A DNA stretch of 64,000 nt, taken from positions 1-64,000 of the forward strand of contig CAMVGR010000006.1 in NCBI GenBank assembly GCA_947167075.1, read 5' to 3'. This DNA comes from an uncultured Bacteroidales bacterium. GTDB lineage: Bacteria; Bacteroidota; Bacteroidia; Bacteroidales; P3. A program made the translations under genes and the position numbers. The notes beneath the pieces are model-generated. The model had not been told where the DNA came from. It ran no database searches and worked only from the letters and a program-made list of their open reading frames with translations. Position 1 is the stretch's first letter. Every line of letters starts with the position of its first letter. Below are positions 10,514 through 58,711 of the stretch, piece after piece.

Positions 10514-10819
10514 TCACCGCAGCCCAAAAAGGACTCCAGGGTGGATAGAAAGTACCTGGAACGTATTGTCACGGTTCATCTACGGTGCATGTACGGTGCA
10601 TGTACGGATGAAGTACGGTGTTGATAGGGGTCAGAGGTTTCGTTGTTCACAATCATACCTATCTATATATAAAACACTCATTACAAATAATATAAAACAA
10701 ATCCATCGTATTCCCGCTCGATGTTCTATCATGACGGAATATCGACCGACTGGAACCCCAAATGTTAAAAAGAGATAACAAGACAACACAACGTACAATC
10801 GAAGTATCTATATAACTGA
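10514..10819. other. Intergenic region before the ECF sigma gene
   Basis: Contains a family-1 array (10571-10625). No TAnnTTTG box was found. AT-rich sequence near 10660-10700 and TGTTAAAAAGAGATAAC near 10763 could hold an ECF-type promoter, but I cannot support one. No gene is seen. Confidence 0.5.
10571..10625 (+). repeat. Family-1 intergenic array, 5 x 11 bp
   Basis: Units are ACGGTTCATCT, ACGGTGCATGT, ACGGTGCATGT, ACGGATGAAGT and ACGGTGTTGAT. It is preceded by TTGTC, as in the copy at 43822. It lies between trmO and the sigma gene, both on the plus strand. Confidence 0.9.
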
Positions 10820-11341
10820 ATGAGCAAGGACTATGGACAGATGGTGGAAGGGTGCCGCCGTGGTGACAGACGTGCACAGAAAGCACTGTATGAGGAATTT
10901 GCGCCGATGGCACTAGGTGTATGCATGCGTTTTGCATCCGACCGCGATGCCGCCCAAGACCTGATGCAGGACGGCTTTGTACGAGTGTATGAGAAAATCG
11001 GTTTGCTCCGCGAGACAGAACACCTAAAAGGCTGGATCTACCGAACCATGATCAACGTCTGCATCCGCGACTACCAACGACGCAAACGCCAGATAGTGCA
11101 ATGCGACGAAACAGCCGACGACAACCTGCCCCCGCTTGACCCATTCGGCACAGAGCAAGTGGTGATGGCTCTGCAGCAACTGCCACGTGCACAACGGCTA
11201 GTGTTCAACCTAACAGAAGTGGAAGGATACAGCTATGCAGAAACGGCAAAAGAGCTGAAATGCAGCGAGGTGAATGTGCGAGCCTTGCTAAGCCGCGCCA
11301 AAGCGGGACTACGCACCCTATTGACACAGAACAGACAATAA
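10820..11341 (+). CDS. ECF-type RNA polymerase sigma factor
   Basis: A 173-aa sigma-70 family protein with region 2 (DAAQDLMQDGFVRVYEKIG, about residues 43-65) and region 4 (LTEVEGYSYAETAKELKCSEVNVRALLSRAKAGL, near the C-terminus) and no regions 1 or 3. It is followed after 9 bp by a single-pass membrane protein that is the likely anti-sigma partner. Promoter targets are not visible; such pairs often activate their own operon. Confidence 0.93.
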   Translation: MSKDYGQMVEGCRRGDRRAQKALYEEFAPMALGVCMRFASDRDAAQDLMQDGFVRVYEKIGLLRETEHLKGWIYRTMINVCIRDYQRRKRQIVQCDETADDNLPPLDPFGTEQVVMALQQLPRAQRLVFNLTEVEGYSYAETAKELKCSEVNVRALLSRAKAGLRTLLTQNRQ

Positions 11342-11350
11342 CGACAGAAT

Positions 11351-12181
11351 ATGGATATAAAAGAATACAGGGTAGAACCTGACAAAGGATTGTACGAAAA
11401 GATAGAACGCCGAGTGGCACAACGCCGCATGTGGCGCTGGACAGCTACCGCACTCACCGTAGTGGCAGTAGTGGGGACCGCACTCATGCTATGGGTTGAC
11501 CACGACACTCCGGCCAGCACCCCGCAGGTGGCTACAGTTCCCTCGGTGACCACATCTCCATCACAGCAACTAGCCGCGGAACCTGCCCCAACTGTGGCAG
11601 AGAGCCAGAAGCAAACAGTGACCATGGCAGAAAAGAGTGTCGAAATAGCCAGGCCAGAGCGAGTAGAAGACCTCCCCATCCACCTTGCATCCGAGTATAC
11701 CCCCTCCATCGTGGAGCAAAATCCAACCCTAGAACCAGCCCAGGTACAGGCTGTTAGCCACGATGTGGCGGAACTCATATTAGGTAGCGAGCAGCCCGCT
11801 GTCGAAACAGAAGTAGCCTCCGTCGAGGAGAGCAATGCGGCCATGGCTCCGACATCGCAAGTAGCAACCTCGGCCAAAGGCAGCTCCACCGTCCACTACG
11901 AGAATGTCTTTACTGCCCCCAACATTATCGTTCCGCAAGGCGAAGTAGACGAGAACCGTCGGTTCAAACTCTTTGCCTCGAGCAGCGTAACCTCCTTCCA
12001 CATGGCCATCTATAACCGCGGCGGACGCCAGGTGTTCAGCACCGACAACATCAACGAAGCCTGGGACGGCACCTATAAAGGCAGACCCGCGACACAAGGC
12101 AGCTACGTGTGGGTGGCATCATTCCGAGACAGCGACGGCAAACCACGCAGCGAACGCGGCACTGTGACCGTTGTGCAATAG
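11351..12181 (+). CDS. Membrane-anchored anti-sigma-like protein with gliding-type C-terminal domain
   Basis: A 276-aa protein with a short basic cytoplasmic N-terminus, one membrane segment near residues 34-51 (TALTVVAVVGTALMLWV), a long proline/threonine/valine-rich linker, and a C-terminal 85-residue domain. The latter matches the gliding-motility-associated (CHU_C, T9SS type B) domain: APNIIVP, then IYNRGGRQVFS, WDGTYKGRPATQGSYVW, ending in GTVTVV. Its position behind an ECF sigma gene suggests an anti-sigma factor, but no classical zinc-finger anti-sigma motif is visible. A CHU_C domain on an inner-membrane-anchored protein is unusual. Confidence 0.75.
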   Translation: MDIKEYRVEPDKGLYEKIERRVAQRRMWRWTATALTVVAVVGTALMLWVDHDTPASTPQVATVPSVTTSPSQQLAAEPAPTVAESQKQTVTMAEKSVEIARPERVEDLPIHLASEYTPSIVEQNPTLEPAQVQAVSHDVAELILGSEQPAVETEVASVEESNAAMAPTSQVATSAKGSSTVHYENVFTAPNIIVPQGEVDENRRFKLFASSSVTSFHMAIYNRGGRQVFSTDNINEAWDGTYKGRPATQGSYVWVASFRDSDGKPRSERGTVTVVQ

Positions 12182-12212
12182 CACAATTAGAAAAATATAT
12201 ATAAAATAATTT

Positions 12213-12241
12213 ATCTACGGCACAATAATAGTGTCGTAGAT
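12213..12241 (+). terminator. Possible terminator after the 11351-12181 gene
   Basis: ATCTACGGCAC and GTGTCGTAGAT form an imperfect hairpin with one wobble pair, followed by a weak T stretch (TTCGTT). It separates the sigma operon from rnpB. Confidence 0.45.
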
Positions 12242-12256
12242 TCGTTATATCGCTAA

Positions 12257-12615
12257 TAAATAGCGAAGGCTATCCTATCGCCCGCCAATACAAAGGCGGG
12301 AGGAAAGTCCGGGCAGCTCGAGCCACCATGCTTCCTAACAGGAAGGCGGAGTGAAGGTAACGACACGCCGACAGCCAGCGCCACAGAAAAGAAACCGCCT
12401 AAGGGCAAGGGTGAAAACGCGGGGTAAGAGCCCACGACGCGACCCGGCGACGGGCGCGATGGCAAGCCTCATGGGCTGAAAGACCATGTATACCGGCATA
12501 TAAGGGCAGGCTCGCCCAAGCCGGGGGGTAGGTTGATTGAGACCGTCGGTGACGACGGCCCTAGATTGATGATAGGACACGACAGAACCCGGCTTATCGG
12601 CCACCGCTATTTTTT
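12257..12615 (+). ncRNA. rnpB: RNase P RNA, class A
   Basis: The catalytic RNA that matures tRNA 5' ends. The conserved GAGGAAAGTCCGGGC block (about 12299-12313) and the ACAGAACCCGGCTTATCGG block near the 3' end (about 12583-12601) are diagnostic. GAGCCCACGACGCGACCCGGCGACGGG lies in between. P1 pairs AAATAGCG (12258-12265) with CGCTATTT (12605-12612), and a T-run directly follows as terminator. End points come from P1. Confidence 0.96.
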
Positions 12616-12632
12616 TTTAAAGAAAAACTAAT

Positions 12633-13667
12633 GTGAAAAGACACATCATCATAACAATAATCGCACTGTTAGCAGTGGGTTGTGCTGGAGAATATCCAGG
12701 AATACCTAGCGCTGAAATGCTCGACTACCAGAACCATCATACCTATGGTTCACTGCACCGTTTGGCCACAGCCTACGGAAAAGCCATCAACGCAGCCATC
12801 AAAGCCGACACACTGCATCCGGGAATGTATGCCGACTATGGTGTAACACTTGCCCTTATGGGGCATCAAGGCCCTGCATGTCGTATGCTGAATGCCGAGA
12901 TGAACGCCTTTCCCGAAAGCCGTCCCATGGTGACTCGACTGAAGAAACAACTGATACCCGAGATGATGGGTGACACCCTGTGTGGACTGCGCGATACGGT
13001 AAACCTCGACCAATTGGCTTCATGGGCCTACGATTCACTCACCTCGCTGATGACATTACCCAACGTAGTATCTGTCATAGACAGTTCTGATACCGCATGG
13101 CTCCATCGGCAGACCCCTACAGATTCAACAGAACGCATCCTTCGCCTCACCGCCACACAGAAACGAGAACTGCTAGAACAGGAAGTGCTGGAGGCCGAAC
13201 GACAGAAAAAGGCACGTATAGATTCGATTGCTGCTGCCAAAGAAGCCCAAATAATAGCCCGCGAAAAGGCAAAAAAAGAGCAAGCTACCGCCCGCGAAGA
13301 GGCCAAGGCAAAACAGGCTGCCGATCGTGAACAGGAGCGTGCCAGGAAAGCTGCCGAACGTGAAGAGGCTAAGGCCAAACAAGCAGAAGAGCGTGCAAAG
13401 AAGGCTGCCGAACGTGAAGAAGCCAAAGCCAAGCAAGCAGCCGAACGTGAGCAAGAGCGTGCTAGAAAAGCAGCCGAACGTGAGGAGGCCAAGGCCCAGC
13501 AAGCAGCCGAACGTGAGCAAGAACGTGCAAAGAAGGCTGTCGAGCGCGAGGAGGCTAAAGCCCGACAAGCAGCCGAACGTGAGCAAGAGCGTGCAATGAA
13601 AGCTGCCGAGCGTGAGAAGGCTAAATCAGCTAAGGCAACAGAGGAGGAAGGAGGGGAAGAACAATGA
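12633..13667 (+). CDS. DUF4810-like lipoprotein with Glu/Arg/Ala-rich repeat tail
   Basis: A 344-aa lipoprotein with a signal peptide ending in lipobox AVGC (Cys17) and a GTG start; the ATG two bases upstream is followed at once by a stop. Residues 20-115 resemble DUF4810: HPGMYADYGVTLALMGHQG, then MNAEMNAFPESRPMVTRL. From about residue 180 it is a long charged helix of EREEAKAKQAA and EREQERARKAA blocks, probably a coiled coil. The stop overlaps the next start by ATGA. In other bacteria DUF4810 and DUF799 lipoproteins accompany a CsgG-like pore; no CsgG gene is present here. Confidence 0.75.
   Translation: MKRHIIITIIALLAVGCAGEYPGIPSAEMLDYQNHHTYGSLHRLATAYGKAINAAIKADTLHPGMYADYGVTLALMGHQGPACRMLNAEMNAFPESRPMVTRLKKQLIPEMMGDTLCGLRDTVNLDQLASWAYDSLTSLMTLPNVVSVIDSSDTAWLHRQTPTDSTERILRLTATQKRELLEQEVLEAERQKKARIDSIAAAKEAQIIAREKAKKEQATAREEAKAKQAADREQERARKAAEREEAKAKQAEERAKKAAEREEAKAKQAAEREQERARKAAEREEAKAQQAAEREQERAKKAVEREEAKARQAAEREQERAMKAAEREKAKSAKATEEEGGEEQ
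13310..13630 (+). repeat. In-frame tandem repeat encoding a charged helix
   Basis: DNA units of about 33 and 66 bp (GCCGAACGTGA, then GAGGCTAAGGCC-like blocks) encode 11- and 22-residue helical repeats of the preceding lipoprotein. Copies differ mostly at third positions and in the alternation of AREEAKAKQ with EQERARK. Repeat number may vary between strains. Confidence 0.8.
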
Positions 13668-14428
13668 AAAAGAGACTACATCTGCTGGTAATTCTGGCAA
13701 CAATCGCATTGGCATGGGGGTGTAAAGGTGAAAAAAAGCTAGTTCAATATAACGACCTTTATCGCGAACGTCCCGCCGTTATCTATATCGTCCCTATTGA
13801 AGATAAAGCCGAACACCGAGCCCAACGGGAAGTAGACGATTCGCTCTACAACCTATCACTCAATGCTGCCACCCAACATCTCTATATGACTGCCTCGGCA
13901 CCACTAGTGTACAAAGGCTACTATGTGCTAGGCCCTCTTGCAACAGCACAACTGGCAGCAACGGAGACCCGCACGCTAAAACAGCTTAGAAACGAAAGCA
14001 TCAACGACTATTATTCCGACTTAGGTATCGATGCAGTACTGTTTATCAAGGTCACAAAATGGGAAAACACCTTCAACTCATGGAGTGTTGACATAGACTA
14101 CACCCTACGGGCCGCAGAACACGGCACCGAAATCATGCACACCTTTGTCCATGCCACCAAGTCAGTCAGGACCGACTTCCGTGGCAATCCTTTGCCATTG
14201 AAAGAGGATCTTGCCTTTGCAGAGAAGTATGGATGCGATATAGAAACAGCTCAACGCTGCCGGCTGGTGGAGATAGTGAATGAATATATACTGTCTGACC
14301 TGCCTTCTGGCAAACGGTCAAGAGGAACTGTGATAGAGCCTCACGCTAAAACACATCCCGAATACTTCAGCCTCTGCATCAACCCCGATGGAAGCATAAT
14401 GCTCATTGACCCACCGACAGAACTATGA
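13664..14428 (+). CDS. DUF799 (GNA1162-like) lipoprotein
   Basis: A 254-aa lipoprotein with lipobox AWGC (Cys20). The body resembles DUF799: PAVIYIVPIEDKAEH, then SAPLVYKGYYVLGPLATAQ and YYSDLGIDAVLFIKVTKW. It would sit on the inner leaflet of the outer membrane or the outer leaflet of the inner membrane. It starts within the stop of the DUF4810-like gene and ends within the start of comB. Function is unknown; the family is found beside CsgG-type secretion proteins. Confidence 0.75.
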   Translation: MKKRLHLLVILATIALAWGCKGEKKLVQYNDLYRERPAVIYIVPIEDKAEHRAQREVDDSLYNLSLNAATQHLYMTASAPLVYKGYYVLGPLATAQLAATETRTLKQLRNESINDYYSDLGIDAVLFIKVTKWENTFNSWSVDIDYTLRAAEHGTEIMHTFVHATKSVRTDFRGNPLPLKEDLAFAEKYGCDIETAQRCRLVEIVNEYILSDLPSGKRSRGTVIEPHAKTHPEYFSLCINPDGSIMLIDPPTEL

Positions 14429-15129
14429 AGATAGAAGTATCGCTAAGCCCTGCCCTCTATCCCTATAGAACCATCAAGGGTAACCACACTACGGTAGCAA
14501 TTGACCTCCTGCGGGCCACAACAGCAGTGTGTGCCGCTTTTCAAGCAGGTTGTGAGGCCATCGTCCCACTCGATACATTGGATGGCATTGCAAAATATCG
14601 TACACAAGGCTATGCCATAGCAGCCGAACGAAACGGAAGTAAGGTCGGCGATGCAGAATACGGGAACTCCCCAACAGAGTATCTGCGGCACGATATGCAC
14701 GGCGTAAGAATGGCCTATAGCACCACTAATGGAACGATCAGCATCCTGCATGGTGCCGATGCTAACCGGACTCTGGTTGGATGTTTCGCCAACCTATCTG
14801 CACTTTGCAACTATATTCAAAAAGAAAGGCAAGACACTGTATTACTGTGTTCGGGTTGGAAACAAGACTTTTGCTTGGAAGACACCCTTGTGGCTGGAGC
14901 AATCATCGACAGGCTTTTGCCCAATGCTGAGCTACATGGCGATGCAGCTCAAATGTCGTACGACCTATGGCAGATAGCACGCAAAGACCCATACAGCTAC
15001 TGTCAGAAGGCCAGTCATGTGCATCGTTTGGAGCATCTAGGGGCTCAGCACGATATCATTTTTGCTTTTAAGCAGGATACATGTCCTGTGGTACCAACAC
15101 TTATCGATGGAATGCTAGTCAAACTATGA
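14425..15129 (+). CDS. comB: 2-phosphosulfolactate phosphatase family protein
   Basis: The ComB family hydrolyses 2-phosphosulfolactate to sulfolactate. Visible signatures are AIDLLRATTAVCAAFQAGCEAIVPL (Asp/Arg active-site region), GDAEYGNSPTEY, STTNGTISI and CSGWKQDFCLEDTLVAGAI. The length of 234 aa is normal. It is embedded between the DUF799 and PAP2 genes by ATGA overlaps. No other coenzyme M or sulfolactate genes are seen, so the substrate here may differ. Confidence 0.85.
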   Translation: MKIEVSLSPALYPYRTIKGNHTTVAIDLLRATTAVCAAFQAGCEAIVPLDTLDGIAKYRTQGYAIAAERNGSKVGDAEYGNSPTEYLRHDMHGVRMAYSTTNGTISILHGADANRTLVGCFANLSALCNYIQKERQDTVLLCSGWKQDFCLEDTLVAGAIIDRLLPNAELHGDAAQMSYDLWQIARKDPYSYCQKASHVHRLEHLGAQHDIIFAFKQDTCPVVPTLIDGMLVKL

Positions 15130-15746
15130 GGTATCTGTCTACCATAATACTCCTATTCATTGCAACCTCTTCTTTTGCTCAGTCAGACACCCTCGGTCGT
15201 CCCACTTTGACGGCACCGGCAATCGGCACCGCCTTGGTAGCATGTGGCTCCCTTTTTACCTTTCAACCCACCATGAATGCCCTGGAAGTGGGATTACGCA
15301 ATTCCATACATTCCACACCTCAACCGAGACTTTATTTCGACGACCAGCTCCAGTTCTCGGGTTTGGTCCTTGCCCCTACGCTGAATCTTTGCGGAGTAAA
15401 AAGCCGCAATTCTCTTAAAAAAATACTACTGCTGGAAGGCGGTAGCTATATACTTGGATACAGTATTGTGATGGCGACAAAGTATGGCATCCATATTTCA
15501 CGCCCCGACGAGCGAGGAATAAATAGCTTTCCTAGTGGACATACATTCACCGCTTTCGCTGGAGCAGAGGTACTGAGGCGCGAATATGGTCAGGAGTATC
15601 CCGGAATCGCCATAGCCGGATATGCCCTTGCCTCGCTGGTGGGTGCCATGAGGATATACAACAATCGGCACTGGCTAGGCGATGTGCTGGCTGGGGCTGG
15701 CATTGCAATACTCTCTGTGGGGGTTACCTATTGGTTATTTGAATAA
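15126..15746 (+). CDS. PAP2 family phosphatase, membrane protein
   Basis: The three acid-phosphatase motifs are present: KYGIHISRP (KX6RP-like), FPSGHT and RIYNNRHWLGDV (RX5HX3D). The start at ATG 15126 (MRYLSTIILLF) gives a signal-peptide-like N-terminus and an ATGA overlap with comB; the longer frame from 15081 is not credible. The protein has 206 aa and several membrane segments. It probably dephosphorylates lipid pyrophosphates or lipid A-type substrates in the periplasm; specificity is unknown. Confidence 0.87.
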   Translation: MRYLSTIILLFIATSSFAQSDTLGRPTLTAPAIGTALVACGSLFTFQPTMNALEVGLRNSIHSTPQPRLYFDDQLQFSGLVLAPTLNLCGVKSRNSLKKILLLEGGSYILGYSIVMATKYGIHISRPDERGINSFPSGHTFTAFAGAEVLRREYGQEYPGIAIAGYALASLVGAMRIYNNRHWLGDVLAGAGIAILSVGVTYWLFE

Positions 15747-15757
15747 ATATTGATATT

Positions 15758-17461
15758 ATGTCACTTCTTACAACAAAAAACATTAAAGGGGATATTTTTG
15801 GAGGCATCACTGCCGGTATCGTTGCCTTGCCTTTGGCATTAGCATTCGGAATACAAGCATTCAGCGGTATTGGCAATCCCGATGCCGCATCGATGGGGGC
15901 CTATGCCGGTCTGGTCGGAGCCACCCTCTTGGGATTCTTCGCCGCACTCTTCGGGGGCACCCATAGCCAAATCAGCGGTCCTACCGGTCCTATGACTGTG
16001 ATCACCGCCACGCTCGTGAGCGGAGCATTTGCCTCAAGTGGCGGCAGTATTTCCACCGTGCTGATCAGCATGGCACTGGCGGCCATATTCTGCGGACTGT
16101 TCCAAATACTGTTTGGAGTCATCAAATTGGGCAAATACGTGCGGTATATCCCCTACCCCGTCCTATCCGGATTCATGAGCGGCATTGGTGTAATCATCAT
16201 TCTGCAGCAGATTTATCCTCTTTTAGGGCAAAGCAAGGGAGGCTCGATGCTTGACCTACTGGCCGGCTTGCCGTCGGCCATCGGCCTCACCTCGCCTACA
16301 GCTCTCCTGCTGGGGCTAGGCACTGTCGCCATCATCTACCTTTTCCCACTCATCACCAAGAAGGTACCCTCCACACTAGTGGCACTTCTGGTCATGACCG
16401 TAGTGTCCTTATTCATCAATATGGAGGGCGTTCCCACCATTGGCAAGATTCCATCCGGTCTACCCCTGCCATTCTTTGCCAACAGCAATGTGAGCCTTGC
16501 CGGACTGGATTGGGGCACCATAATCAATGCCTCGCTCATCCCTGGTCTTACACTGGCCGGCCTTGGTAGCATCGATACCCTGCTCACCTCGGTAGTGGCC
16601 GACAACATCACCAAGACAAAACACAATAGCAATCGCGAACTGATCGGACAGGGAATCGGCAATGCCGTGGCAGGCCTCTTCTGTGGGCTTCCTGGTGCCG
16701 GTGCAACCATGCGCACAGTGGTCAATGTGAAGAGTGGCGGACGCACCCAACTCAGCGGTATGGTGCATGCATTGTTCCTTTTGGCCATCATGCTTGGACT
16801 GGGTTCACTGGTACAGTATGTGCCCCTGTCGGTTCTGGCTGGTATCCTTATCACCGTGGGATGGGGCATTATCGACTTCAAGGGATTCCGCGACCTGCCC
16901 AAGATACCACGCGCCGATGCAGTGGTTCTCATCGTGGTGTTTCTAGTCACCGTCTTCGTCGACCTACTCACCGCCGTTGGCATCGGAATGGTTATCGCAT
17001 GTGTACTGTTCATGAAGCGTGCCTCCGACCTGGTAGAAGGCGGCTATAGCAGTCAGGAAATGACCAATTTCGACAAAGAGAGCCCCTGGGACGATGAGCA
17101 CGGCATGCCCGACACCGTGGCCCACCGCATATACATACAACGACTGAATGGACCTATCTTTTTCGGCACCATCAACAAATTCAAAGAGGTGATGCAGACA
17201 GTGCCCACCGATGCCAAGATAGTCATAATCCGTATGCGACTGGTTTCGTTTATGGACCAAAGCGGACTCTATGCCATGGAGGAAGCCATCAAAGACATAC
17301 AGGCCAGAGGCACACAGGTGCTCATGACCATCATACAGCCGCAACCGATGTACATGCTTACCAAGATGAAACTCATTCCCGAAGTAATTCCAGAAGAACA
17401 CACCTTCAAGACCTTCGAGGAATGCACACAATTTCTCCGCAATCAGATAGACAATAATTAA
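15758..17461 (+). CDS. SulP family inorganic anion transporter with STAS domain
   Basis: A 567-aa SLC26/SulP protein. The transport domain (about 1-410) has the N-terminal GDIFGGITAGIVALPLALAFGI and the anion-site loop GGTHSQISGPTGPMTV. A cytoplasmic STAS domain (about 455-560) ends it, with VIIRMRLVSFMDQSGLYAMEEA. Substrate may be sulfate, bicarbonate or chloride. It starts 11 bp after the PAP2 gene and may share its transcript. Confidence 0.93.
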   Translation: MSLLTTKNIKGDIFGGITAGIVALPLALAFGIQAFSGIGNPDAASMGAYAGLVGATLLGFFAALFGGTHSQISGPTGPMTVITATLVSGAFASSGGSISTVLISMALAAIFCGLFQILFGVIKLGKYVRYIPYPVLSGFMSGIGVIIILQQIYPLLGQSKGGSMLDLLAGLPSAIGLTSPTALLLGLGTVAIIYLFPLITKKVPSTLVALLVMTVVSLFINMEGVPTIGKIPSGLPLPFFANSNVSLAGLDWGTIINASLIPGLTLAGLGSIDTLLTSVVADNITKTKHNSNRELIGQGIGNAVAGLFCGLPGAGATMRTVVNVKSGGRTQLSGMVHALFLLAIMLGLGSLVQYVPLSVLAGILITVGWGIIDFKGFRDLPKIPRADAVVLIVVFLVTVFVDLLTAVGIGMVIACVLFMKRASDLVEGGYSSQEMTNFDKESPWDDEHGMPDTVAHRIYIQRLNGPIFFGTINKFKEVMQTVPTDAKIVIIRMRLVSFMDQSGLYAMEEAIKDIQARGTQVLMTIIQPQPMYMLTKMKLIPEVIPEEHTFKTFEECTQFLRNQIDNN

Positions 17462-17492
17462 TTACCAACAACCCCTATTTAGCTTATACACT

Positions 17493-18203: not shown

Positions 18204-18227
18204 CGACTAACACTCACCAAAACAATG

Positions 18228-18264
18228 ATAGCCAAGGAGCCCTTGCTCCCTGGCTATTATTTTG
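18228..18264 (+). terminator. Terminator after the YebC gene
   Basis: ATAGCCAAGGAGC and GCTCCCTGGCTAT form a stem with a short loop, followed by TATTTT. It may work in both directions because ctpA converges from the other side. Confidence 0.75.
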
Positions 18265-18327
18265 CACCTGCACCCCTCCTACCGCCGAATCACATCTGTA
18301 AACACCCCCTGCCAAGTCCGTTTCGTC

Positions 18328-18382
18328 ACGGTGCATTCACGGTGCATCTACGGTGCATGTACGGATGAAGTACGGTGTTGAT
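18328..18382 (+). repeat. Family-1 intergenic array, 5 x 11 bp
   Basis: Units are ACGGTGCATTC, ACGGTGCATCT, ACGGTGCATGT, ACGGATGAAGT and ACGGTGTTGAT. It sits between the convergent ends of the YebC and ctpA genes. Confidence 0.9.
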
Positions 18383-18418
18383 GCGGTGAGAGGCTGAATT
18401 ACATGTGGTTACAATGCA

Positions 18419-20014: not shown

Positions 20015-20048
20015 ACGATATATTTAAATGATATTGCATTACATGAGT

Positions 20049-22133: not shown

Positions 22134-22290
22134 AACGATGAAAAACGGATAGAACCATAGAGGTATCCATGCACCTCTCCTACAGGCCACAGGAAATGAC
22201 ATGGTAATTATCATTTGCACTTGATTTAATCAGTTGTTATTTTTTGCCGATAACTTTATTTTCGACTACCTATATCTTACTCGACTAAAT

Positions 22291-22345
22291 GATGATAAAA
22301 AGATGACTAGGAGATGAGTAAGAGATGAGTAAGAGTTGGTCTATC
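22291..22345 (+). repeat. Family-2 intergenic array, 5 x 11 bp (copy B)
   Basis: Units are GATGATAAAAA, GATGACTAGGA, GATGAGTAAGA, GATGAGTAAGA and GTTGGTCTATC, preceded by CTTACTCGACTAAAT exactly as in copy A. Homology to copy A extends from about 22240 to 22410 and includes CTTCAA, CAGGGAGTTG and a T-rich end. Confidence 0.88.
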
Positions 22346-31207: not shown

Positions 31208-31539
31208 ATAAAAAAAACTAACATGGTAAAAAATCTTTGTATCAGTCTCTCGAAAAGGATGTGATAAATCGTTTATTTTCACTCGTTTTAAGTACAGTCC
31301 CTCGCAGCATAGCAATCGTAGCCTCTCAATCCCATGCTATTACGCATCAACACCGTACTTCATCCGTACATGCACCGTACATGCACCGTACCATCCTCGC
31401 ATTTTAACAATGCATTCACCTTTCATCCACGCCCATGTCTCCTATCGATGTCGCAGATATTAAATCCCAAGCCTGGCAATACTAAAATAGGATATTCGAC
31501 GTTACTGTAGCGTAATATTTTTTAAGACACAATACCATC
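31208..31539. other. serC / lipoprotein divergent intergenic region
   Basis: Contains a family-1 array (31346-31389) and no gene. I could not find a consensus promoter for the rightward operon; GCGTAATATTTTTTAAG near 31511-31527 is only AT-rich. Confidence 0.5.
31346..31389 (-). repeat. Family-1 intergenic array, 4 x 11 bp
   Basis: Read on the minus strand the units are ACGGTGCATGT, ACGGTGCATGT, ACGGATGAAGT and ACGGTGTTGAT. The sequence before them (TTGTTAAAATGCGAGGATGGT) is nearly the same as that before the copy at 49073. It sits between divergent genes. Confidence 0.9.
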
Positions 31540-37856: not shown

Positions 37857-38106
37857 AATAAACTATCATTTTTTTACCATAACGTACTTTTCTCCTACTT
37901 ATTGCTTACTCAACTAAAAGATGATAAATAGATGATAAAGGGAAGAGTAGGAGATGAGTAAGAGATGGTCTAACTTGAAGGCTGTATTACAAGGGATTGC
38001 ATTCATGTTTATGGAGGCTATTTCTAAAGCCACATTGCGGAAAAATATAAAGCCGTGGGGTGATGCCCACGGCCTTGTACAAGTCCGAAACTCCACATGA
38101 GGGGAG
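37857..38106. other. Upstream region of DUF6266 copy 1
   Basis: The first 115 bp are shared almost base for base with the flank of the other DUF6266 gene and include the family-2 array. A second hairpin (GCCGTGGG, loop, CCCACGGC, 38051-38072) lies downstream of the 38165 gene. Frames open here are not credible genes. Confidence 0.6.
37920..37974 (+). repeat. Family-2 intergenic array, 5 x 11 bp (copy C)
   Basis: Units are GATGATAAATA, GATGATAAAGG, GAAGAGTAGGA, GATGAGTAAGA and GATGGTCTAAC, preceded by CTTACTCAACTAAAA. It lies 64-118 bp upstream of the DUF6266 start, pointing away from that gene. Confidence 0.9.
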
Positions 38107-43821: not shown

Positions 43822-43876
43822 ACGGTGCATCTACGGTGCATGTACGGTGCATGTACGGATGAAGTACGGTTCAGAC
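43822..43876 (+). repeat. Family-1 intergenic array, 5 x 11 bp
   Basis: Units are ACGGTGCATCT, ACGGTGCATGT, ACGGTGCATGT, ACGGATGAAGT and a diverged ACGGTTCAGAC. It is preceded by TTGTC. Confidence 0.9.
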
Positions 43877-49072: not shown

Positions 49073-49127
49073 ACGGTGCATGTACGGTGCATGTACGGTT
49101 GAAGTACGGTTGAAGTACGGTGTTGAT
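49073..49127 (+). repeat. Family-1 intergenic array, 5 x 11 bp
   Basis: Units are ACGGTGCATGT, ACGGTGCATGT, ACGGTTGAAGT, ACGGTTGAAGT and ACGGTGTTGAT. The 5' flank (ATTGTTAAAGAGCGAGGATGGT) matches that of the copy at 31346. It lies between corA and the glycosyltransferase gene. Confidence 0.9.
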
Positions 49128-49245: not shown

Positions 49246-49265
49246 TATTCCTAAAATGACACACT

Positions 49266-50420: not shown

Positions 50421-50504
50421 TACTCTACATTATTTTTTTTCATACACATAATATTTAATAAAGACGTTCGTTAATAGAGCAAAAATAAAGAATAAAGCCA
50501 AGAC

Positions 50505-51982: not shown

Positions 51983-51991
51983 CAAAACAAT

Positions 51992-52516: not shown

Positions 52517-52602
52517 GCACTCAGAATACACTTTTTTTCAATCAATACAAATCTGAAATTCAGCTATTTTCGGGTGTATCAAAAAGAAAAAACAAAAAAA
52601 AA

Positions 52603-52634
52603 TTTGGCCGAATAAGAAAAAGAGCGTATCTTTG
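52603..52634 (+). promoter_or_regulatory. Promoter of tRNA-Arg
   Basis: TTTG (52603-52606), 20 bp, TATCTTTG (52627-52634). The tRNA begins about 38 bp downstream. Confidence 0.78.
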
Positions 52635-52672
52635 CACTCGCTTTCAGGGAAAGAAAAGCCCAACAAGCGAAT

Positions 52673-52749
52673 GGCTCCTTAGCTCAACTGAATAGAGCAT
52701 CTGACTACGGATCAGAAGGTTGCAGGTTTGAATCCTGCAGGAGTCACCA
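52673..52749 (+). tRNA. tRNA-Arg (anticodon ACG)
   Basis: A complete cloverleaf. The acceptor stem pairs GGCTCCT with AGGAGTC, the anticodon stem TCTGA/TCAGA encloses CTACGGA with ACG at 52707-52709, and the T arm reads GCAGGTTTGAATCCTGC. CCA is encoded. A34 should be deaminated to inosine to read CGU, CGC and CGA. Confidence 0.97.
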
Positions 52750-52782
52750 ACGAGGATGAATAGAATCATCCTCGTTTCTTTA
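52750..52782 (+). terminator. Terminator of tRNA-Arg
   Basis: ACGAGGATGA and TCATCCTCGT pair perfectly, followed by TTCTT. Confidence 0.82.
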
Positions 52783-52784
52783 TA

Positions 52785-52819
52785 TATACAAATCCCCGCC
52801 CTTGACCAGGGCGGGGATT
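52785..52819 (-). terminator. Terminator of the SPFH gene
   Basis: A 12-bp perfect stem (AATCCCCGCCCT, loop, AGGGCGGGGATT) lies 26 bp after the stop on the minus strand. The tail is AT-rich, not a pure T-run. Confidence 0.75.
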
Positions 52820-52845
52820 GATTCATGATTCTGTTGGAGAAACTA

Positions 52846-53634
52846 CTACTTGAGATTGATGAATGGGACAGCATCGCCCATCATGTATTGTGGCATCTTG
52901 CCATCCCACTTTTGAACAGCCTCGTAGCTCACTAGTTTAGGATTACGCTCAAGAGCGTTGGCCTTTATACGCATAGCTTCTGCTTCAGCCTCGGCAGCTA
53001 TTTTGGTTTGCTTGGCTTGCTCCTCTACCTGAATGGTCACATTCTTGGCTCGCAAGGCGTTTTGTTCGGCCACCTGCTTCTCCTTAATAGCATTCTCAAA
53101 CTGGTCGTCAAAGTCAATATCTACCAGCTGGAATTGGATGTTGGTAAAATAGTTGCTATCCAGGGTGTTTCTTAGAGTGGCTTCTATCTCTTTTCTCACC
53201 TCATTTCTATTCTCAACTATCTCTGTTGCCGCAAAATTACCAAAGCTCTCTTTCATGGCCGAACGGATGAATGGAACCACAATTCGGTTGTGATAGTCCA
53301 TTCCCACATTGCGATACAGCTTGTTTACATTTTTCCGAACAAGGTCGTAGTTGATAGTATAGTCGACCTCCGATGTCTGCACATCGCGGGTGTAGGTGTT
53401 TTCATGGCCGTCGAACTTCTTCTGTTGGATATTGATCTTCTTTACACTCTGTATGAAAGGTATCTTCATGTGCAGACCATCTTCTATCGTATTCTCGGAA
53501 ATGCGCCCGAATGTACTTAGAATACCTCGTTCTGTTGATTTGATAGTGTAAAATGACGATGCGGCCAAGATAATAACCAGCACAGCCAAAATAATGGTTG
53601 TCGTCGTTTTCTTTGTGTTGTCAAAAAAGTTCAT
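52846..53634 (-). CDS. SPFH/band 7 (prohibitin, HflC-like) membrane protein
   Basis: A 262-aa protein with one N-terminal membrane anchor (about residues 12-30, TIILAVLVIILAASSFYTI), the SPFH domain (STERGILSTFGRISENTIEDGLHMKIPF to VDIDFDDQFENAI) and a C-terminal Glu/Ala-rich coiled coil (KQTKIAAEAEAEAMRIKANALE). Such proteins form large rings that organise membrane proteases or lipids. The partner is not known. Confidence 0.9.
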   Translation of the reverse strand: MNFFDNTKKTTTTIILAVLVIILAASSFYTIKSTERGILSTFGRISENTIEDGLHMKIPFIQSVKKINIQQKKFDGHENTYTRDVQTSEVDYTINYDLVRKNVNKLYRNVGMDYHNRIVVPFIRSAMKESFGNFAATEIVENRNEVRKEIEATLRNTLDSNYFTNIQFQLVDIDFDDQFENAIKEKQVAEQNALRAKNVTIQVEEQAKQTKIAAEAEAEAMRIKANALERNPKLVSYEAVQKWDGKMPQYMMGDAVPFINLK

Positions 53635-53661
53635 AGTGCTATTATTTTATTGTTAATTTAT

Positions 53662-54438
53662 TCAATCACAGAGTATGTACAGGTCGTCTCTCGGATTAAG
53701 GAACAAAATAGGGGTATGCGAGGAATGACCCATGAGGCGATATTCCGGCAATACTGAGAATAGATCAAACAGCGTTCTTTCTCGAGTGTCGGTGGCTCTA
53801 GCTACCAGCATATCGGGGGCAACCTGTTCAAGCACTTGCTCATCCTCCCTAGTGCTTGAGCCTAGAATGTATTCAGAGTAGTCTATTTTCAGCGGAGAAT
53901 ACATCTTCTCAACAAACTTCATGTTGTTTTTCAGGCGGCGTTGTAGCCCTTCGTCGCGATAGTTCGGATGGGCAATAGTCAGATGTGCACCCATAAACCT
54001 AGCGAGATACGATGCCCATACTAGCTTCTCCTTTCCCTCTCGTTTGTGAGTTAGGGTCAATGCCACCGAGGGAGTACTCTGCCATACAATGCTTTCTGGG
54101 TGAATGCACACATACGCTATCTTACACTTGCTGAACTGTCGATGCAGTGTGTGCGGATTGGCTAGCGACTGTCGAGGGGCTTGGGGGTCGCATAAAGTAA
54201 TGGCCAAGATACCTTCAAGCATCGTAGGCAAGCCCTCGATGGCGGTTTTCCAATCCCCTTTTAGACCAATATATGGTATTCCCACCTCCTTCAGCCACGA
54301 CGGGCTACCATCCTTACTCACATTGAGGGCCACCAGTCTCTTGTTGCGCAGTCTGCCAGCTAACAGTTTCGCCCACGCCAATAGTAGCGGTGCGTCTGCT
54401 GCTTTTTCTATACAAACTATGACTGATTGGTCCTTCAT
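53662..54438 (-). CDS. Universal-stress-protein-like cytoplasmic protein
   Basis: A 258-aa protein with two Usp-like halves: VIVCIEKAADAPLLLAWAKLLAGRL at the start and VALTLTHKREGKEKLVWASYLARFMGAHLTI in the middle. The classical Usp ATP loop is not clear, so nucleotide binding is doubtful. It lies 27 bp upstream of the SPFH gene and 9 bp downstream of the large T9SS protein gene, so all three may be on one transcript. Confidence 0.6.
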   Translation of the reverse strand: MKDQSVIVCIEKAADAPLLLAWAKLLAGRLRNKRLVALNVSKDGSPSWLKEVGIPYIGLKGDWKTAIEGLPTMLEGILAITLCDPQAPRQSLANPHTLHRQFSKCKIAYVCIHPESIVWQSTPSVALTLTHKREGKEKLVWASYLARFMGAHLTIAHPNYRDEGLQRRLKNNMKFVEKMYSPLKIDYSEYILGSSTREDEQVLEQVAPDMLVARATDTRERTLFDLFSVLPEYRLMGHSSHTPILFLNPRDDLYILCD

Positions 54439-54447
54439 CTCGTATTG

Positions 54448-57400
54448 CTATCTTATTAAGGTAATATCCCCTTTAATATCGCTTTCCAATCCACCCCGGC
54501 AACGTATGTGACAACTGTAGGTATACACCCCAGCGAGACACTTCTCGTTGCGGAATGTTCCATCCCAACAGGAGCCTATTTCGTCACTCTCATACACCAT
54601 TTGTCCCCACCTGTTGAATATCGCAATGTGGAACTCTGTAAGCAGAGGGCCTCGGAAACAGACCTTATCATTATATCCATCGTCGTTCGGAGTGAATGCA
54701 TTGGGGATGAACAACTGCTCCTCGCCACAGTTCACCTCGAAACAACGAATACACACCGAGTCCGATGCTTTGCATCCCGACTGGCTGGTGGCGGTCACCG
54801 TGTAGCACGTAAGCGTGTCGTCGGGGGTGACAACAGCATCACGGGCTGTGGGATTCTCCACCGTAGCCGACGGTGTCCAAATGTATGTAGCAGGCATGGT
54901 CACACCCACGGCATGCACCGTAGTGCTCTCGCCCATCGCCACTATCGACTGGTCGGCCACTGCCTTGAGGCTATCGAGCGAATGGTCGCGCGAGACAATC
55001 GTAGTATCCGATAGCGGACAGCCAAGCGAGATTAGGTTGGTGACATATACACCCTCGCACAGCCCCGTAATCAGCGTATCGAGTGGCTGAACCTCCGGAA
55101 TAGCACTCATATTATAGCGAATATGTATACGTCCGGTACAGCTATCCGAGCACAACACTGCATCAGTCTCTTTCTCATAATACGGCAACGGTGGGTTTTC
55201 TAGCTTCACATCTGTAGTGTATTCGCATCCGTATCCGGAAACGGTGAGGTGATACACCACATTTGCCGACAGATTATCTAGCGAGAAAAACCAACGGTCG
55301 CCCACCTTGACCGGTGCACTCACCGTACACGAAGGTACAACATAGACACTGACCGAATCTGGATCCATCTCTGTACCCAGTCGGAAGAGGGCTTTCCCGT
55401 CTGACGAATCGTGGCACGATATGGCGGTGATACCTTGCTGATCCACCAGTGTATATCCTTTCACATGGAATGTATCCGTCTGCGTGCACCCACCACTCAC
55501 CGTGCTCTGCAGCACATAGTTGCCCGTCTTGCTCACCCAGGGGTTAGCCACATTCGGGTCGCTCACCGAATCGCCCGTCCAATGGTAGGTCACTCCCAAA
55601 GCGGGCTGAGGACCGATCTGTATCATGGAGCCGTTGCATGCTATTTCAGGCGTGTGGGTGAAGGATTCCGACCCAAGCACCTGCACCAGATGAGTGATGG
55701 TGTCCGAGGTCTTGCAACCTCCCTCCATTTTGGCCACGAGGGTGACTGTGTAGTTACCAGCAGAGGTATATGTATGCTGCGGCGAGGTTTCGGTCGAGGT
55801 GCTATCGTCGCCAAAATCCCATTCGAACGAGGTACCACGCCCTGTGTTCTCAAATGTGACAGTATATGGAGCACACCCGCCCATCGGCATAGTGAAATCG
55901 GCCACCGGATAGCCGTCGTGGACATTGAACCGGAAAAGCCCGTTGTTGCAGTTTGTCGATTTGTTTTGACTGCTCCAGGCGCTGTCGGTGATTGGGAAGC
56001 CATTGTCGCCGCCGCATGAGGCGCACACGCTTTGGTAGAGCGTGCTCTGGCGGTCGAAGCGCGATGTGCCACCATCCACATGGTCGCTCCCGCGCGATGT
56101 ACCGCTACCGCCATGCAACTCGCCAAAGAAGGATGCGAACTCCAATGTCGAGGCATCGCTTGCGAGGCTCATGATATAGAAGTCCTGCCCGTCGGTAGTA
56201 TCCTGATAGGCATCCGAAGTGGTCTCCATGCCGCTGGTACCTTTAGTATACCATGTCACCCCGTTGTATCCCACAAAATCGCGACCCCACCCTGCCGCAT
56301 ACACGCGGTCGCAGATGTCCACGCCGAATGCCGTAGGAGAAAGATTGATACGCCCCGGAGTGCCAAACACCGTGCTCCACCTCAGCGTGTCGAAGGTTGG
56401 CGACATTCGCACCAGCAGCATGCCGCTATTGTTCACACTGTAGGCAGCGTTGTATATCATCGTGCTGCCATTGGGATGGGTCTGTCCGAACAAAAACACA
56501 TCGTCTTTGGGCCCCGAGCGGACAAAATACAGCTGGTCGTAGTATTGTGCACCATAGTAGCCCGAAGCCATCAGCTTGTCACCATAGTACGATATTTTGC
56601 TCACAAAACCGTCGGCACTGCCACCTCCATAGTAGGATTGATACACCCCCTCGGTGACTGGGAAATCGCTACTCGAAGTGCCACCACACACCAGCAGGTT
56701 GTAGTCGTGATCCACATCGACACTGTACACAGCATCGTCTTTCGACCCACCTAGATAGGTACTCCACAAGAGGGTGTGAAGGTTGTGGTCTATCTTGAAC
56801 ACCACTCCGTCCTGTTTGCCGCCGTTGGTGGTTTGCACAGCTCCCTCCGATACCGGAAAATCAGTACTGAATGTGGTCGATCCGATATATATATTGTTCA
56901 ACTGGTCGGTGATGATTTCGCCCCTGGCCCCGTCGCCATAGTTTCTGTAGAGCGAATCGTTGCCATCCATAATGGTTTGGTAGGAGTTATTAAAGTGCTG
57001 CTTGTAGTTGAGGCCGTCGTTGCCGCTGCCTCCTACATAGGTCGAGGCCTTCAGCTCGTCGCCCGACGACGAAAGGCGGCTCACAAAGATGTCGCTTCCA
57101 TCCTCGAACGACATGCTGGGAGAGAGGTAGTTGATCAGCGGGCCGCCGCCGAACGAGCTTTGATAGGCCGCTGCTGTAACAGGGAAATCGCTCGATCCGG
57201 TAGTGCCAAATATCACAAGCTCGTCGAACGAGTTCACAATCATGCTGTGGGGCATATCCACCGACGAGCCTCCCAGATAGGTAGCGTAGCAACGTTGCGA
57301 CCCTGTCGAGTCGAACTTGAAGATACCCACATCGATGGCTCCGCCAAACACCGTCTGGTATGCTCCCAGCGAGACGGGATAGTTCAGCCCGAACACCAGG

Positions 57401-58221
57401 CCAGCTGTATACACATTCTTCTGGGCATCGTAGGTAGCTGTGGTGCCCCAATTGTCCGCCACCGACCCAGTATAGGTGGAGAAGATCAGCGTAGGGTCAA
57501 TCACCAGGTCTCTGTCGTGGTCGTAGGCATCCACTTCGATGGTGGCGCAGTAGCGACCTTCGCCCATACGATGCACACGCCATCGGCTGAGCACCTCCAC
57601 CTTCCCTCCCCTATACTCTTGATATACGTATGGTTTCAACTCCACCACATCGCGCACCGTGGTACGGATACGCAGCTCGCCATCTCGCCCTACCTCCACT
57701 CCGTCGGTACCTTCATAGACTATCTTGATATGGGTAGGATTCCCGTCTGGATGTACCACAAAATTATACTTCAGGGCCCTTTTGTCGCCTGTCAACTCAA
57801 GATCCACCCCCTCGTAAAGCCCATCGTAGACCACCTTTGCATAGCTTGCCACAGCGGTCCGCCAGCGGGCAGGATTGTTACCGAGGAAATAGTTGCTGGT
57901 CTCCTTGTCGGCCATATTGCCGAAGGGCGACGACGCATTGCTGCCGGCGAAAGTCATCCGGTAGGCATGATACGACACCTGGCTGAGGTCCTTCGCCGGA
58001 TGGATCGCACGCGACCTCAGCGCCACAGTCACCGAACTGTCTTCCAAGAAGAGGGCTGCGTCGTGTAGCTGCGCCTGAAAATAGTAGTCGCCATCCCACT
58101 GACCTTTGTTTTCCACAAAACGGACCTCAGTACCAGCACCGAGGGTATCCCGTTCGGAACGCCCTATTACACTGAAAGACAGCGTCAGACAGCAAATCAT
58201 CAAACACAAATAGTGCTTCAT
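54448..58221 (-). CDS. Large secreted T9SS type-B protein with SBBP repeats and PKD domain
   Basis: A 1257-aa surface or secreted protein. A signal peptide is followed by a DUF7948-like N-domain (FVENKGQWDGDYYF to SNYFLGNNPARWRT). A repeat propeller (about 270-700) carries repeated SSDFPVTxxAYQ blocks (SBBP). A PKD domain (GTSFEWDFGDDSTSTETSPQHTYTSAGNYTVT) and further beta domains follow. The C-terminus is a gliding-type sorting domain (FIPNAFTPNDDGYNDKVCF, IFNRWGQMVYES, GVYTYSCHIR). Probably an adhesin or matrix protein. ATG 58221 is preferred over ATG 58227. Confidence 0.85.
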   Translation of the reverse strand: MKHYLCLMICCLTLSFSVIGRSERDTLGAGTEVRFVENKGQWDGDYYFQAQLHDAALFLEDSSVTVALRSRAIHPAKDLSQVSYHAYRMTFAGSNASSPFGNMADKETSNYFLGNNPARWRTAVASYAKVVYDGLYEGVDLELTGDKRALKYNFVVHPDGNPTHIKIVYEGTDGVEVGRDGELRIRTTVRDVVELKPYVYQEYRGGKVEVLSRWRVHRMGEGRYCATIEVDAYDHDRDLVIDPTLIFSTYTGSVADNWGTTATYDAQKNVYTAGLVFGLNYPVSLGAYQTVFGGAIDVGIFKFDSTGSQRCYATYLGGSSVDMPHSMIVNSFDELVIFGTTGSSDFPVTAAAYQSSFGGGPLINYLSPSMSFEDGSDIFVSRLSSSGDELKASTYVGGSGNDGLNYKQHFNNSYQTIMDGNDSLYRNYGDGARGEIITDQLNNIYIGSTTFSTDFPVSEGAVQTTNGGKQDGVVFKIDHNLHTLLWSTYLGGSKDDAVYSVDVDHDYNLLVCGGTSSSDFPVTEGVYQSYYGGGSADGFVSKISYYGDKLMASGYYGAQYYDQLYFVRSGPKDDVFLFGQTHPNGSTMIYNAAYSVNNSGMLLVRMSPTFDTLRWSTVFGTPGRINLSPTAFGVDICDRVYAAGWGRDFVGYNGVTWYTKGTSGMETTSDAYQDTTDGQDFYIMSLASDASTLEFASFFGELHGGSGTSRGSDHVDGGTSRFDRQSTLYQSVCASCGGDNGFPITDSAWSSQNKSTNCNNGLFRFNVHDGYPVADFTMPMGGCAPYTVTFENTGRGTSFEWDFGDDSTSTETSPQHTYTSAGNYTVTLVAKMEGGCKTSDTITHLVQVLGSESFTHTPEIACNGSMIQIGPQPALGVTYHWTGDSVSDPNVANPWVSKTGNYVLQSTVSGGCTQTDTFHVKGYTLVDQQGITAISCHDSSDGKALFRLGTEMDPDSVSVYVVPSCTVSAPVKVGDRWFFSLDNLSANVVYHLTVSGYGCEYTTDVKLENPPLPYYEKETDAVLCSDSCTGRIHIRYNMSAIPEVQPLDTLITGLCEGVYVTNLISLGCPLSDTTIVSRDHSLDSLKAVADQSIVAMGESTTVHAVGVTMPATYIWTPSATVENPTARDAVVTPDDTLTCYTVTATSQSGCKASDSVCIRCFEVNCGEEQLFIPNAFTPNDDGYNDKVCFRGPLLTEFHIAIFNRWGQMVYESDEIGSCWDGTFRNEKCLAGVYTYSCHIRCRGGLESDIKGDITLIR

Positions 58222-58231
58222 ATCCATGCTG

Positions 58232-58239
58232 CAAAGATA
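58232..58239 (-). promoter_or_regulatory. -7 box of the large T9SS protein gene
   Basis: TATCTTTG on the minus strand ends only 10 bp before the ATG at 58221. The transcript would start at or within a few bases of the start codon, that is, almost leaderless. Confidence 0.65.
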
Positions 58240-58242
58240 CAC

Positions 58243-58711
58243 ATTTTAGTTCAATCTCCCCAAAAAAATTCAACAATAATTAAAAAAACACACCATTTCG
58301 ATACACCCATCGTGCCTTTTCTCCGTACATACCACTCCGTCAGCCACATTGGTTAGCACTACATAAAATATAACAATAACCAATTCGCATTCAATTATAT
58401 ACACAGGAAAGACAATCATAAACCATTGTCTTTCAACCACTGGGAGGTACCAACACCGTACTTCCTCCGTACATGCACCGTAGATGAACCGTAGATGCAC
58501 CGTGAATACAATGTAGCCACACGACCCAACTACGGAGCACTATCGCCGCAATCGCACAGAGCACATCGCGGATGGACTCCCCTCCCCTTTGGCAGAGGTC
58601 ACCATTGTGGTGTAACCATTCGGCGACATAGGCACAATAATATATGAATAAGCAGGCAGCATCGAGTAGCTTTAGGAAAGATTTTTTTTCGTGCATATAA
58701 AATAAAATGTA
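58243..58711. other. Divergent intergenic region upstream of the DUF349 gene
   Basis: Contains a perfect inverted repeat GAAAGACAAT (58407-58416 with 58425-58434) directly before a family-1 array, and otherwise AT-rich sequence. Frames open here on the minus strand overlap the array and look non-coding. Confidence 0.5.
58449..58503 (-). repeat. Family-1 intergenic array, 5 x 11 bp
   Basis: On the minus strand the units are ACGGTGCATCT, ACGGTTCATCT, ACGGTGCATGT, ACGGAGGAAGT and ACGGTGTTGGT. It is the most diverged copy but keeps the unit order. It lies between divergent genes. Confidence 0.88.

What the first reader, a model, noticed from the sequence alone, without database searches (positions are those of the whole stretch)
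10571..58503. Six dispersed intergenic arrays of 11-bp units (family 1)
Arrays of four or five direct units related to ACGGTGCATGT occur at 10571, 18328, 31346, 43822, 49073 and 58449. All are intergenic, on both strands, between co-directional, convergent and divergent gene pairs alike. The unit is exactly 11 bp at every site, near one helical turn, so a bound protein would meet the same face of DNA each time. They have no spacers and no long terminal repeats.
Basis: seen in the sequence. Interest (0 to 1): 0.82.

Follow-up and report, generated by a model that had tools for sequence, protein, structure and literature searches.

The report
Evenly spaced intergenic 11-bp arrays
This bacterium carries short tandem 11-letter DNA tags between its genes, one kind of them found only in its own species, evenly spaced at about one per nine thousand letters, which suggests an unknown chromosome-marking system or an unusual mobile element rather than random repeats.

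Summary
Confirmed and extended. All six arrays are real. In 864 kb of this genome (38%) I counted 55 family-1 arrays; none was found in the 119 other held genomes of the genus, allowing 2 mismatches in a 22-mer.

Each array is the core of a polarised element: a degenerate inverted 5' arm, 4-5 units in near-fixed order, an end (ACGGTGTTGAT) and a weak tail. In nine copies with a matching head, 1 of 28 freely scored core sites varies, against 24 of 72 in the head and 28 of 44 in the tail. No decayed copies were seen.

Relatives carry 11-bp arrays with other units ("dialects"), mostly at other positions. The main new result is even spacing. Family 1 and family 2, unlike in unit sequence, share one lattice: 84 arrays, mean 9.35 kb, CV 0.555, 2 spacings under 4 kb against 24 expected. 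It recurs in G071 and G029, more weakly in G009.

Best reading: tandem sites for an unidentified, dialect-specific DNA-binding factor, kept at intervals. A mobile element with target immunity is the main rival. Binder and function are not shown.

The parts
10571..10625 (+). family-1 array, 5 units (ACGGTTCATCT, ACGGTGCATGT x2, ACGGATGAAGT, ACGGTGTTGAT)
18328..18382 (+). family-1 array, 5 units; tail-like GCTGAATTACATGTGGTTACAAT just downstream (about 18393-18415)
31346..31389 (-). family-1 array, 4 units, preceded by the variant lead GCGAGGATGGT
43822..43876 (+). family-1 array, 5 units, the last one variant (ACGGTTCAGAC)
49073..49127 (+). family-1 array, 5 units, preceded by the variant lead GCGAGGATGGT
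58449..58503 (-). family-1 array, 5 units, the last one ACGGTGTTGGT
3733..3785 (+). family-2 array (GATGAGTAAGA units, 11-bp period) with tail ACTGGTTTACAGCGGGTTGAAA; shares the spacing lattice with family 1
22283..22345 (+). family-2 array with tail GCTGTTTTTCAGGGAGTTGCAAA
37915..37967 (+). family-2 array with tail GCTGTATTACAAGGGATTGCAT
63148..63201 (-). family-2 array

Best explanation
The arrays are the recognised core of a dispersed, non-coding chromosomal element. SHOWN: 55 family-1 copies in 38% of the genome; 11-bp units in near-fixed order; mostly intergenic; unique to this species among those held; core nearly invariant while its flanks diverge; gained in this lineage at the sites compared; family 1 and family 2, unlike in unit sequence, share one evenly spaced lattice. 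INFERRED: a sequence-specific, probably DNA-binding factor encoded in the genome reads the array cooperatively, one subunit per unit and helical turn. Its specificity changes between species, hence the dialects. Selection keeps roughly one array per 9-13 kb, while individual copies are gained and lost, probably by a copying or transposition process that uses the palindrome and tail. The role proposed is marking the chromosome at intervals (compaction, topological domains, segregation or repair).
For: Constraint, nine copies with a matching head: core 1 of 44 variable sites, head 24 of 72, tail 28 of 44. 16 of the 44 core sites (ACGG) were fixed by my search pattern; on the other 28, 1 varies, head against core p = 0.0016. 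In a scan that does not fix ACGG, all 55 arrays in 864 kb lie within 11 mismatches of a 55-bp consensus, none at 12-16, and all 28 matches at 17-20 are the opposite strand of the same arrays. Spacing: family 1 has 0 spacings under 4 kb against 8.0-10.8 expected from random intergenic slots (0 of 5000 draws). Families 1 and 2: CV 0.555 against 0.962, 2 under 4 kb against 24.1. 0 of 29 family-2 arrays lie within 3 kb of a family-1 array against 8.7-9.7 expected, family-1 slots excluded. G071: CV 0.40 against about 0.90. G029: CV 0.48, P 0.0003-0.0027; all 23 detected arrays CV 0.33. Dialects. Exact unit: 102 near arrays, 0 elsewhere. No strand link to gene-strand majority or GC skew.
Against: No binding protein or phenotype was found. 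Array positions are mostly not shared: 5 of 6 own array intervals have no array in G071, and 13 of 13 alignable relatives lack the one at L039:4651, which suits a mobile element. G009 alone is marginal (12 arrays, P 0.047-0.073 for CV). With ten 11-bp arrays not assigned by my patterns, own spacing is less regular (CV 0.711, 4 of 89 under 4 kb). Family 2 alone is not significantly even (CV P = 0.20). The slot test rests on simple ORF calls, not curated genes.
Confidence: 0.48

Rival explanations
1. A selfish, non-autonomous mobile repeat (MITE/REP-like) whose enzyme reads the array and/or tail and shows target immunity, so new copies avoid the neighbourhood of old ones; species-specific bursts give the dialects.
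For: Lineage-specific gain: own is 210-294 bp longer at L039:4651 than 13 of 13 alignable relatives, none with an array. In five intervals where own has an array and G071 none, own is longer by 164-334 bp. A family-2 site is empty in 3 of 3 relatives with both flanks aligned. Another dialect has high copy number in few species: 129, 67, 29 and 15 hits. Families 1 and 2 share a weak tail.
Against: No decayed copies although heads and tails have diverged strongly. Two families unlike in unit sequence exclude each other, which needs a shared immunity signal. Of 20 Y1 transposase loci examined 1 has an array within 400 bp. G008 and G009 have arrays but no Y1 match. No terminal inverted repeats or target duplications could be defined by eye; weak evidence, because flanks are too diverged.
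Confidence: 0.28
2. A self-recognition (DNA-uptake-type) sequence: arrays let competent cells prefer DNA of their own species, and even spacing puts a tag on most long fragments.
For: Species dialects and even spacing are both features reported for uptake sequences: a passage of PMC1939737 reports significant even spacing, attributed to Karlin et al.; passages of PMC7811141 give about 1 kb spacing in H. influenzae and cite a paper titled on dialects. Orientation shows little bias.
Against: The exact unit was not found singly outside arrays and spacing is about ten times wider. [quoted passage not shown] Competence genes were not examined.
Confidence: 0.12
3. An RNA-level element: a transcribed hairpin acting as terminator, mRNA stabiliser or RNA-binding site.
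For: 15 of 55 family-1 5' flanks pair with the array at z < -2 against 3 of 55 control flanks (p = 3.6e-7). Dialects of relatives form long palindromes. 11 bp is about one turn of A-form RNA (established knowledge).
Against: Divergent gene pairs are common (20 of 54 family-1 arrays) and array strand does not follow gene strand (family 2 agrees with the upstream gene in 7 of 28, p = 0.01, one of eight tests). For family 2 the pairing is weak: 3 of 29 flanks at z < -2 against 1 of 29 controls. Folding z of nine elements ran from +1.58 to -3.01, three below -2.
Confidence: 0.08
4. Neutral minisatellites produced by replication slippage.
For: Copy number per array varies (3 to 5 units before the end unit).
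Against: Near-fixed unit order in dispersed copies, invariant core, even spacing and almost sole use of period 11 in the own sample (53 arrays against 0-3 for other periods from 7 to 30 except 22).
Confidence: 0.02

Closest known systems
BrickBuilt MITE/minisatellite of Porphyromonas gingivalis (PMC4596501; abstract, section 5 and passages seen)
   Same: Leader, tandem units, tail; described as always intergenic; 'species-specific repeat' is a keyword.
   Different: 23-nt units, up to 22.8 repeats, 19 copies in one strain, short terminal inverted repeats. Here 11-nt units in near-fixed order, 55 family-1 copies in 38% of the genome, no inverted ends found, even lattice shared by two unit families.
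DNA uptake sequences (USS/DUS) of Pasteurellaceae and Neisseriaceae (passages of PMC7811141 and PMC1939737 seen)
   Same: Many copies, species dialects (title of a cited reference only), significant even spacing reported.
   Different: Short motif about every 1 kb in H. influenzae. Here multi-unit arrays only, mostly intergenic, about every 9-13 kb.
REP elements and RAYT transposases (passages of PMC3733652 seen)
   Same: Palindromic, mostly intergenic, high copy, some families species-specific; one Y1_Tnp match in this genome.
   Different: REPs are 20-40 bp and tagged GTAG or CGTC; RAYT genes are flanked by them or by other inverted repeats. Here Y1 genes are as a rule not flanked and the unit is tandem.
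parC centromere of plasmid R1 (ParR iterons; recalled, not looked up)
   Same: Unspaced direct repeats of 11 bp bound cooperatively by a small DNA-binding protein.
   Different: One plasmid locus with two groups of repeats. Here dozens of chromosomal loci with palindrome arms and dialects; no ParR search was made.
BOX elements of Streptococcus pneumoniae (recalled, not looked up)
   Same: Modular boxA-boxB(n)-boxC architecture, intergenic, many copies.
   Different: Larger modules, other phylum, no lattice known to me.

Membership tests
MITE | terminal inverted repeats | tested here: inconclusive
   No matching ends seen by eye in the 31 family-1 and 22 family-2 rows printed; no dedicated scan was run
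MITE | target-site duplication | tested here: inconclusive
   Empty sites found, but flanks too diverged to define the junction
MITE | lineage-specific insertion | tested here: met
   13 of 13 alignable relatives (14 fetched) empty at one site; 5 of 6 own array intervals without an array in G071
REP with RAYT | Y1 transposase gene flanked by the repeat | tested here: not met
   1 of 20 Y1 loci examined has an 11-bp array within 400 bp; at the own locus the nearest is 2.6 kb away
DNA uptake sequence | even spacing and species dialect | tested here: met
DNA uptake sequence | preferential uptake of tagged DNA | not testable with these tools
   needs transformation assays
BrickBuilt | 23-nt unit | tested here: not met
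   period 11; 0 arrays of period 23 in the 464-kb sample
CRISPR array | unique spacers between repeats | tested here: not met
   units contiguous
ParR/parC-type centromere | cognate ParR/ParM-like genes | not tested
   no search made for them
Rfam RNA family | covariance-model match at curated score | tested here: not met
   in the window only RNase P and one tRNA; in L044, L045 and L199 seven matches up to E 0.1, all microRNA precursors below their curated scores, six of them in L199

The most novel reading that the evidence does not exclude
A new class of bacterial chromosome-marking system: a genus-wide lattice of intergenic 11-bp-unit arrays, one per about 9-13 kb, each species using its own unit dialects, with different dialects in one genome filling the same lattice. 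They would be read by a fast-evolving DNA-binding factor that organises, segregates or identifies the chromosome.
Probability: 0.38. Interest if true: 0.95.

Novelty: new variant of a known kind. Interest (0 to 1): 0.84.

Why it matters
Evenly spaced, sequence-coded chromosomal tags whose spelling changes between related species would link chromosome organisation, mobile DNA and species identity in an uncultured Bacteroidales group. The lattice makes a testable prediction: a factor that binds one dialect and not a related species' dialect. If the rival holds, these genomes give a natural record of target immunity acting over about 4 kb.

Tried and rejected
RAYT link: of the listed Y1_Tnp matches (own genome 1) I examined 20 loci; 1 has an array within 400 bp and 3 within 1.2 kb. 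Reverse transcriptase (RVT_1): one match in the own genome, matches in 5 of the 15 other genus members searched, not pursued. Positional conservation with switched dialect: a first hint on a small set (3 of 6 against 0 of 13, p = 0.02; p = 0.18 at gaps of 100 bp or more) did not hold against G071 (1 of 6 against 2 of 24, p = 0.50). Viral contigs: exact family-1 and family-2 patterns, 0 matches. Plasmids: one family-1 element, no match. Terminator role: orientation and divergent pairs argue against it. The first spacing test on 28 family-1 spacings was not significant (P = 0.06); it became so with 864 kb. My first family-2-to-family-1 test let random slots fall on family-1 sites and overstated the expectation (11.2 within 2 kb); the corrected one is. 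The core-against-head test (p = 3.8e-5) counted sites fixed by my pattern; the corrected one is (p = 0.0016). The reversed-pattern control was not empty: 21 hits in G132, 8 in G061, 1 each in G143 and G072, which I did not examine. Literature: searches returned no paper, three papers each whose titles are unrelated, one P. gingivalis repeat paper not opened; led to BrickBuilt. Subscription papers and preprints are not held, so absence from print is not shown.
Full report
OBSERVATION. The six arrays exist as described, with 5, 5, 4, 5, 5 and 5 contiguous 11-bp units. All 10 exact ACGGTGCATGT in the window lie in them. The genome (2.27 Mb, 37 contigs) has 155 + 171 matches to a 19-mer of two units and none to its reversed control. 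In 464 kb, 53 arrays have period 11; other periods from 7 to 30 give 0-3, apart from 28 at 22, twice 11.

ORGANISM. Two of ten window proteins scanned carry type IX secretion sorting domains. Relatives found with a neighbouring peptidase are mostly Bacteroidales or Bacteroidetes MAGs; six of 36 titles name a rumen, and many bear RUG codes, which I recall as rumen genomes. 120 genomes of its genus are held, own included.

ANATOMY. Arrays are ordered. The commonest form among the first 31 is ACGGTTCATCT - ACGGTGCATGT - ACGGTGCATGT - ACGGATGAAGT (11 of 31), then ACGGTGTTGAT or a variant. The upstream flank tends to be a degenerate inverted copy of the array: 15 of 55 flanks pair with it at z < -2 against 3 of 55 control flanks; for family 2 the figure is 3 of 29 against 1 of 29. 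Downstream lies a weak tail close to CTGAwTTACAG..GTTACAA, also found after family 2 (GATGAGTAAGA units). Using CTNAGTATCAGNCAGTTACAA, a form chosen after seeing relatives, a match with 6 or fewer of 19 mismatches lies by an array in 15 of 92 (own), 10 of 28 (G071), 8 of 23 (G029) and 8 of 12 (G009) cases, against 2, 1, 1 and 0 in control windows. In relatives the palindrome is often near-perfect.

CONSTRAINT. Nine family-1 copies share a recognisable head. Variable sites are 24 of 72 in the head, 1 of 44 in the core, 28 of 44 in the tail and 41 of 44 beyond. My pattern fixed 16 of the 44 core sites; on the other 28, 1 varies (p = 0.0016 against the head). Scanning 864 kb with a 55-bp consensus, which does not fix ACGG, gives 55 arrays at 11 or fewer mismatches and nothing at 12-16; all 28 matches at 17-20 are the opposite strand of those arrays. 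So no decaying relics were seen although flanks have diverged. 208 of 216 units fall into 10 recurrent types, ACGG fixed by the pattern.

SPECIES DIALECTS. Family 1 is found in 1 of 120 genus genomes, the own one (22-mer, up to 2 mismatches). Family 2 is wider: 27 of 119 genomes, own included with 94 hits. A different unit, ACGGAGGTGAG, gives 129, 67, 29, 15, 1 and 1 hits in six genomes and none in the other 114; the reversed control gave 21, 8, 1 and 1 hits in four others, not examined. Genus relatives have 24 period-11 arrays in 400 kb and 27 in 433 kb of closely related named contigs; 261 kb from other families of the order has none apart from two all-N contigs, and 240 kb of more distant named contigs has one. 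Relatives also have period-7 arrays, absent from the own 464-kb sample.

GAIN AND LOSS. At L039:4651 the own genome has 358-423 bp between conserved blocks where 13 relatives have 67-162 bp without an array; a 14th could not be aligned on both sides. At a family-2 site 3 of 4 relatives had both flanks aligned, and all three lack an array (82-120 bp against about 700). Against G071, 30 syntenic intervals were found; of 6 with an own array, 5 have none in G071 and one carries an array of another dialect in the same orientation; of 24 without, 2 have one in G071. Two further orthologous gaps show a different 11-bp array in one relative and none in two. Positions therefore turn over.

EVEN SPACING. 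Family 1 (55 arrays, 50 spacings) has mean 14.5 kb and minimum about 4.1 kb; random choice among intergenic slots gives 8.0-10.8 spacings under 4 kb, observed 0 (0 of 5000 draws; CV 0.66 against 0.90-0.94, P 0.001-0.007). Family 2 alone is not significantly even by CV (P = 0.20). Families 1 and 2 together: 84 arrays, mean 9.35 kb, CV 0.555 against 0.962, 2 under 4 kb against 24.1. None of 29 family-2 arrays lies within 3 kb of a family-1 array, against 8.7-9.7 expected when family-1 slots are excluded (0 of 5000). Adding 10 arrays not assigned by my patterns, two of which look like family 2: 94 arrays, 4 of 89 spacings under 4 kb against 26-31, CV 0.711. In G071: 33 detected, 27 used after merging neighbours within 400 bp and dropping three masked runs; two of the 27 are masked runs judged by their edges; CV 0.40 against about 0.90, 0 of 4000 draws. 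In G029: 20 of 23 detected arrays used after dropping three inside ORF calls of 200 aa or more, CV 0.48, P 0.0003-0.0027; all 23 give CV 0.33 and none under 4 kb. In G009: 12 arrays, CV 0.60, P 0.047-0.073. Because families unlike in unit sequence exclude each other, recombination between like repeats does not explain the lattice. Slots come from simple ORF calls, which is the main weakness.

CONTEXT. 43 of 55 family-1 and 26 of 29 family-2 arrays lie outside called ORFs. Family-1 arrays sit between divergent (20), co-directional (13) and convergent (9) genes, with 12 in ORF calls, 54 counted; all intergenic intervals of 250 bp or more number 42, 69 and 17. Strand shows no link to gene-strand majority or GC skew; one of eight tests (family 2 against upstream gene, 7 of 28) gave p = 0.01.

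MECHANISM. The invariant core next to diverging flanks, the absence of isolated units (102 against 0) and the dialects point to recognition in trans of the whole array, most simply by a protein binding unit after unit. The lattice points either to selection for spacing or to insertion that avoids existing copies. I favour selection for spacing because relics were not seen and two families share the lattice, and put mobile-element immunity second. Both could be true: a mobile element that became useful.

KNOWN SYSTEMS. BrickBuilt shares architecture but not unit, copy number or ends. Uptake sequences share dialects and even spacing (passages) but not array form. REP/RAYT shares palindromes and intergenic dispersal (passages), but of 20 Y1 loci examined 1 has an array within 400 bp. 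Plasmid R1 parC (recalled) is the nearest precedent for cooperative binding to unspaced 11-bp repeats.

CHANGES AFTER CHECKING.

Noticed in passing
window 3733-3785, 22283-22345, 37915-37967, 63148-63201: A second 11-bp family (GATGAGTAAGA) with the same kind of tail, shared with other species of the genus and interleaved with family 1.
   Followed up: yes
L063-L118, for example L081:2603-2767, L090:18016-18205: Relatives carry many period-7 arrays (AGTTNNN-like heptads), 42 in 400 kb; the own sample of 464 kb has none.
   Followed up: partly
L042:10714-10773; L043:6118-6208; own C2 about 125112: Further rare 11-bp families in the own genome (GAGCGGAGTTA, TATATGCATTC) and an array that mixes GCGAGGATGGT units with ACGG units.
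   Followed up: partly
G000:C2:174109-174450 and G000:C9:39642-40226: Single matches in this genome to Y1_Tnp and to a reverse transcriptase domain.
   Followed up: partly
window about 3870-3997: Upstream of clpB an inverted repeat like CTGCCAnnTTGGCAG is kept in many of the 11 relatives shown; the own copy looks imperfect. Possibly a heat-shock promoter or operator.
   Followed up: no
G071 contigs C1 and C9, as fetched: Masked (N) runs whose edges look like 11-bp arrays.
   Followed up: no
L094:2580-2769: A long 11-bp array (GGCATCATCTA units, about 190 bp) in the gap orthologous to the family-2 site at window 22283.
   Followed up: partly
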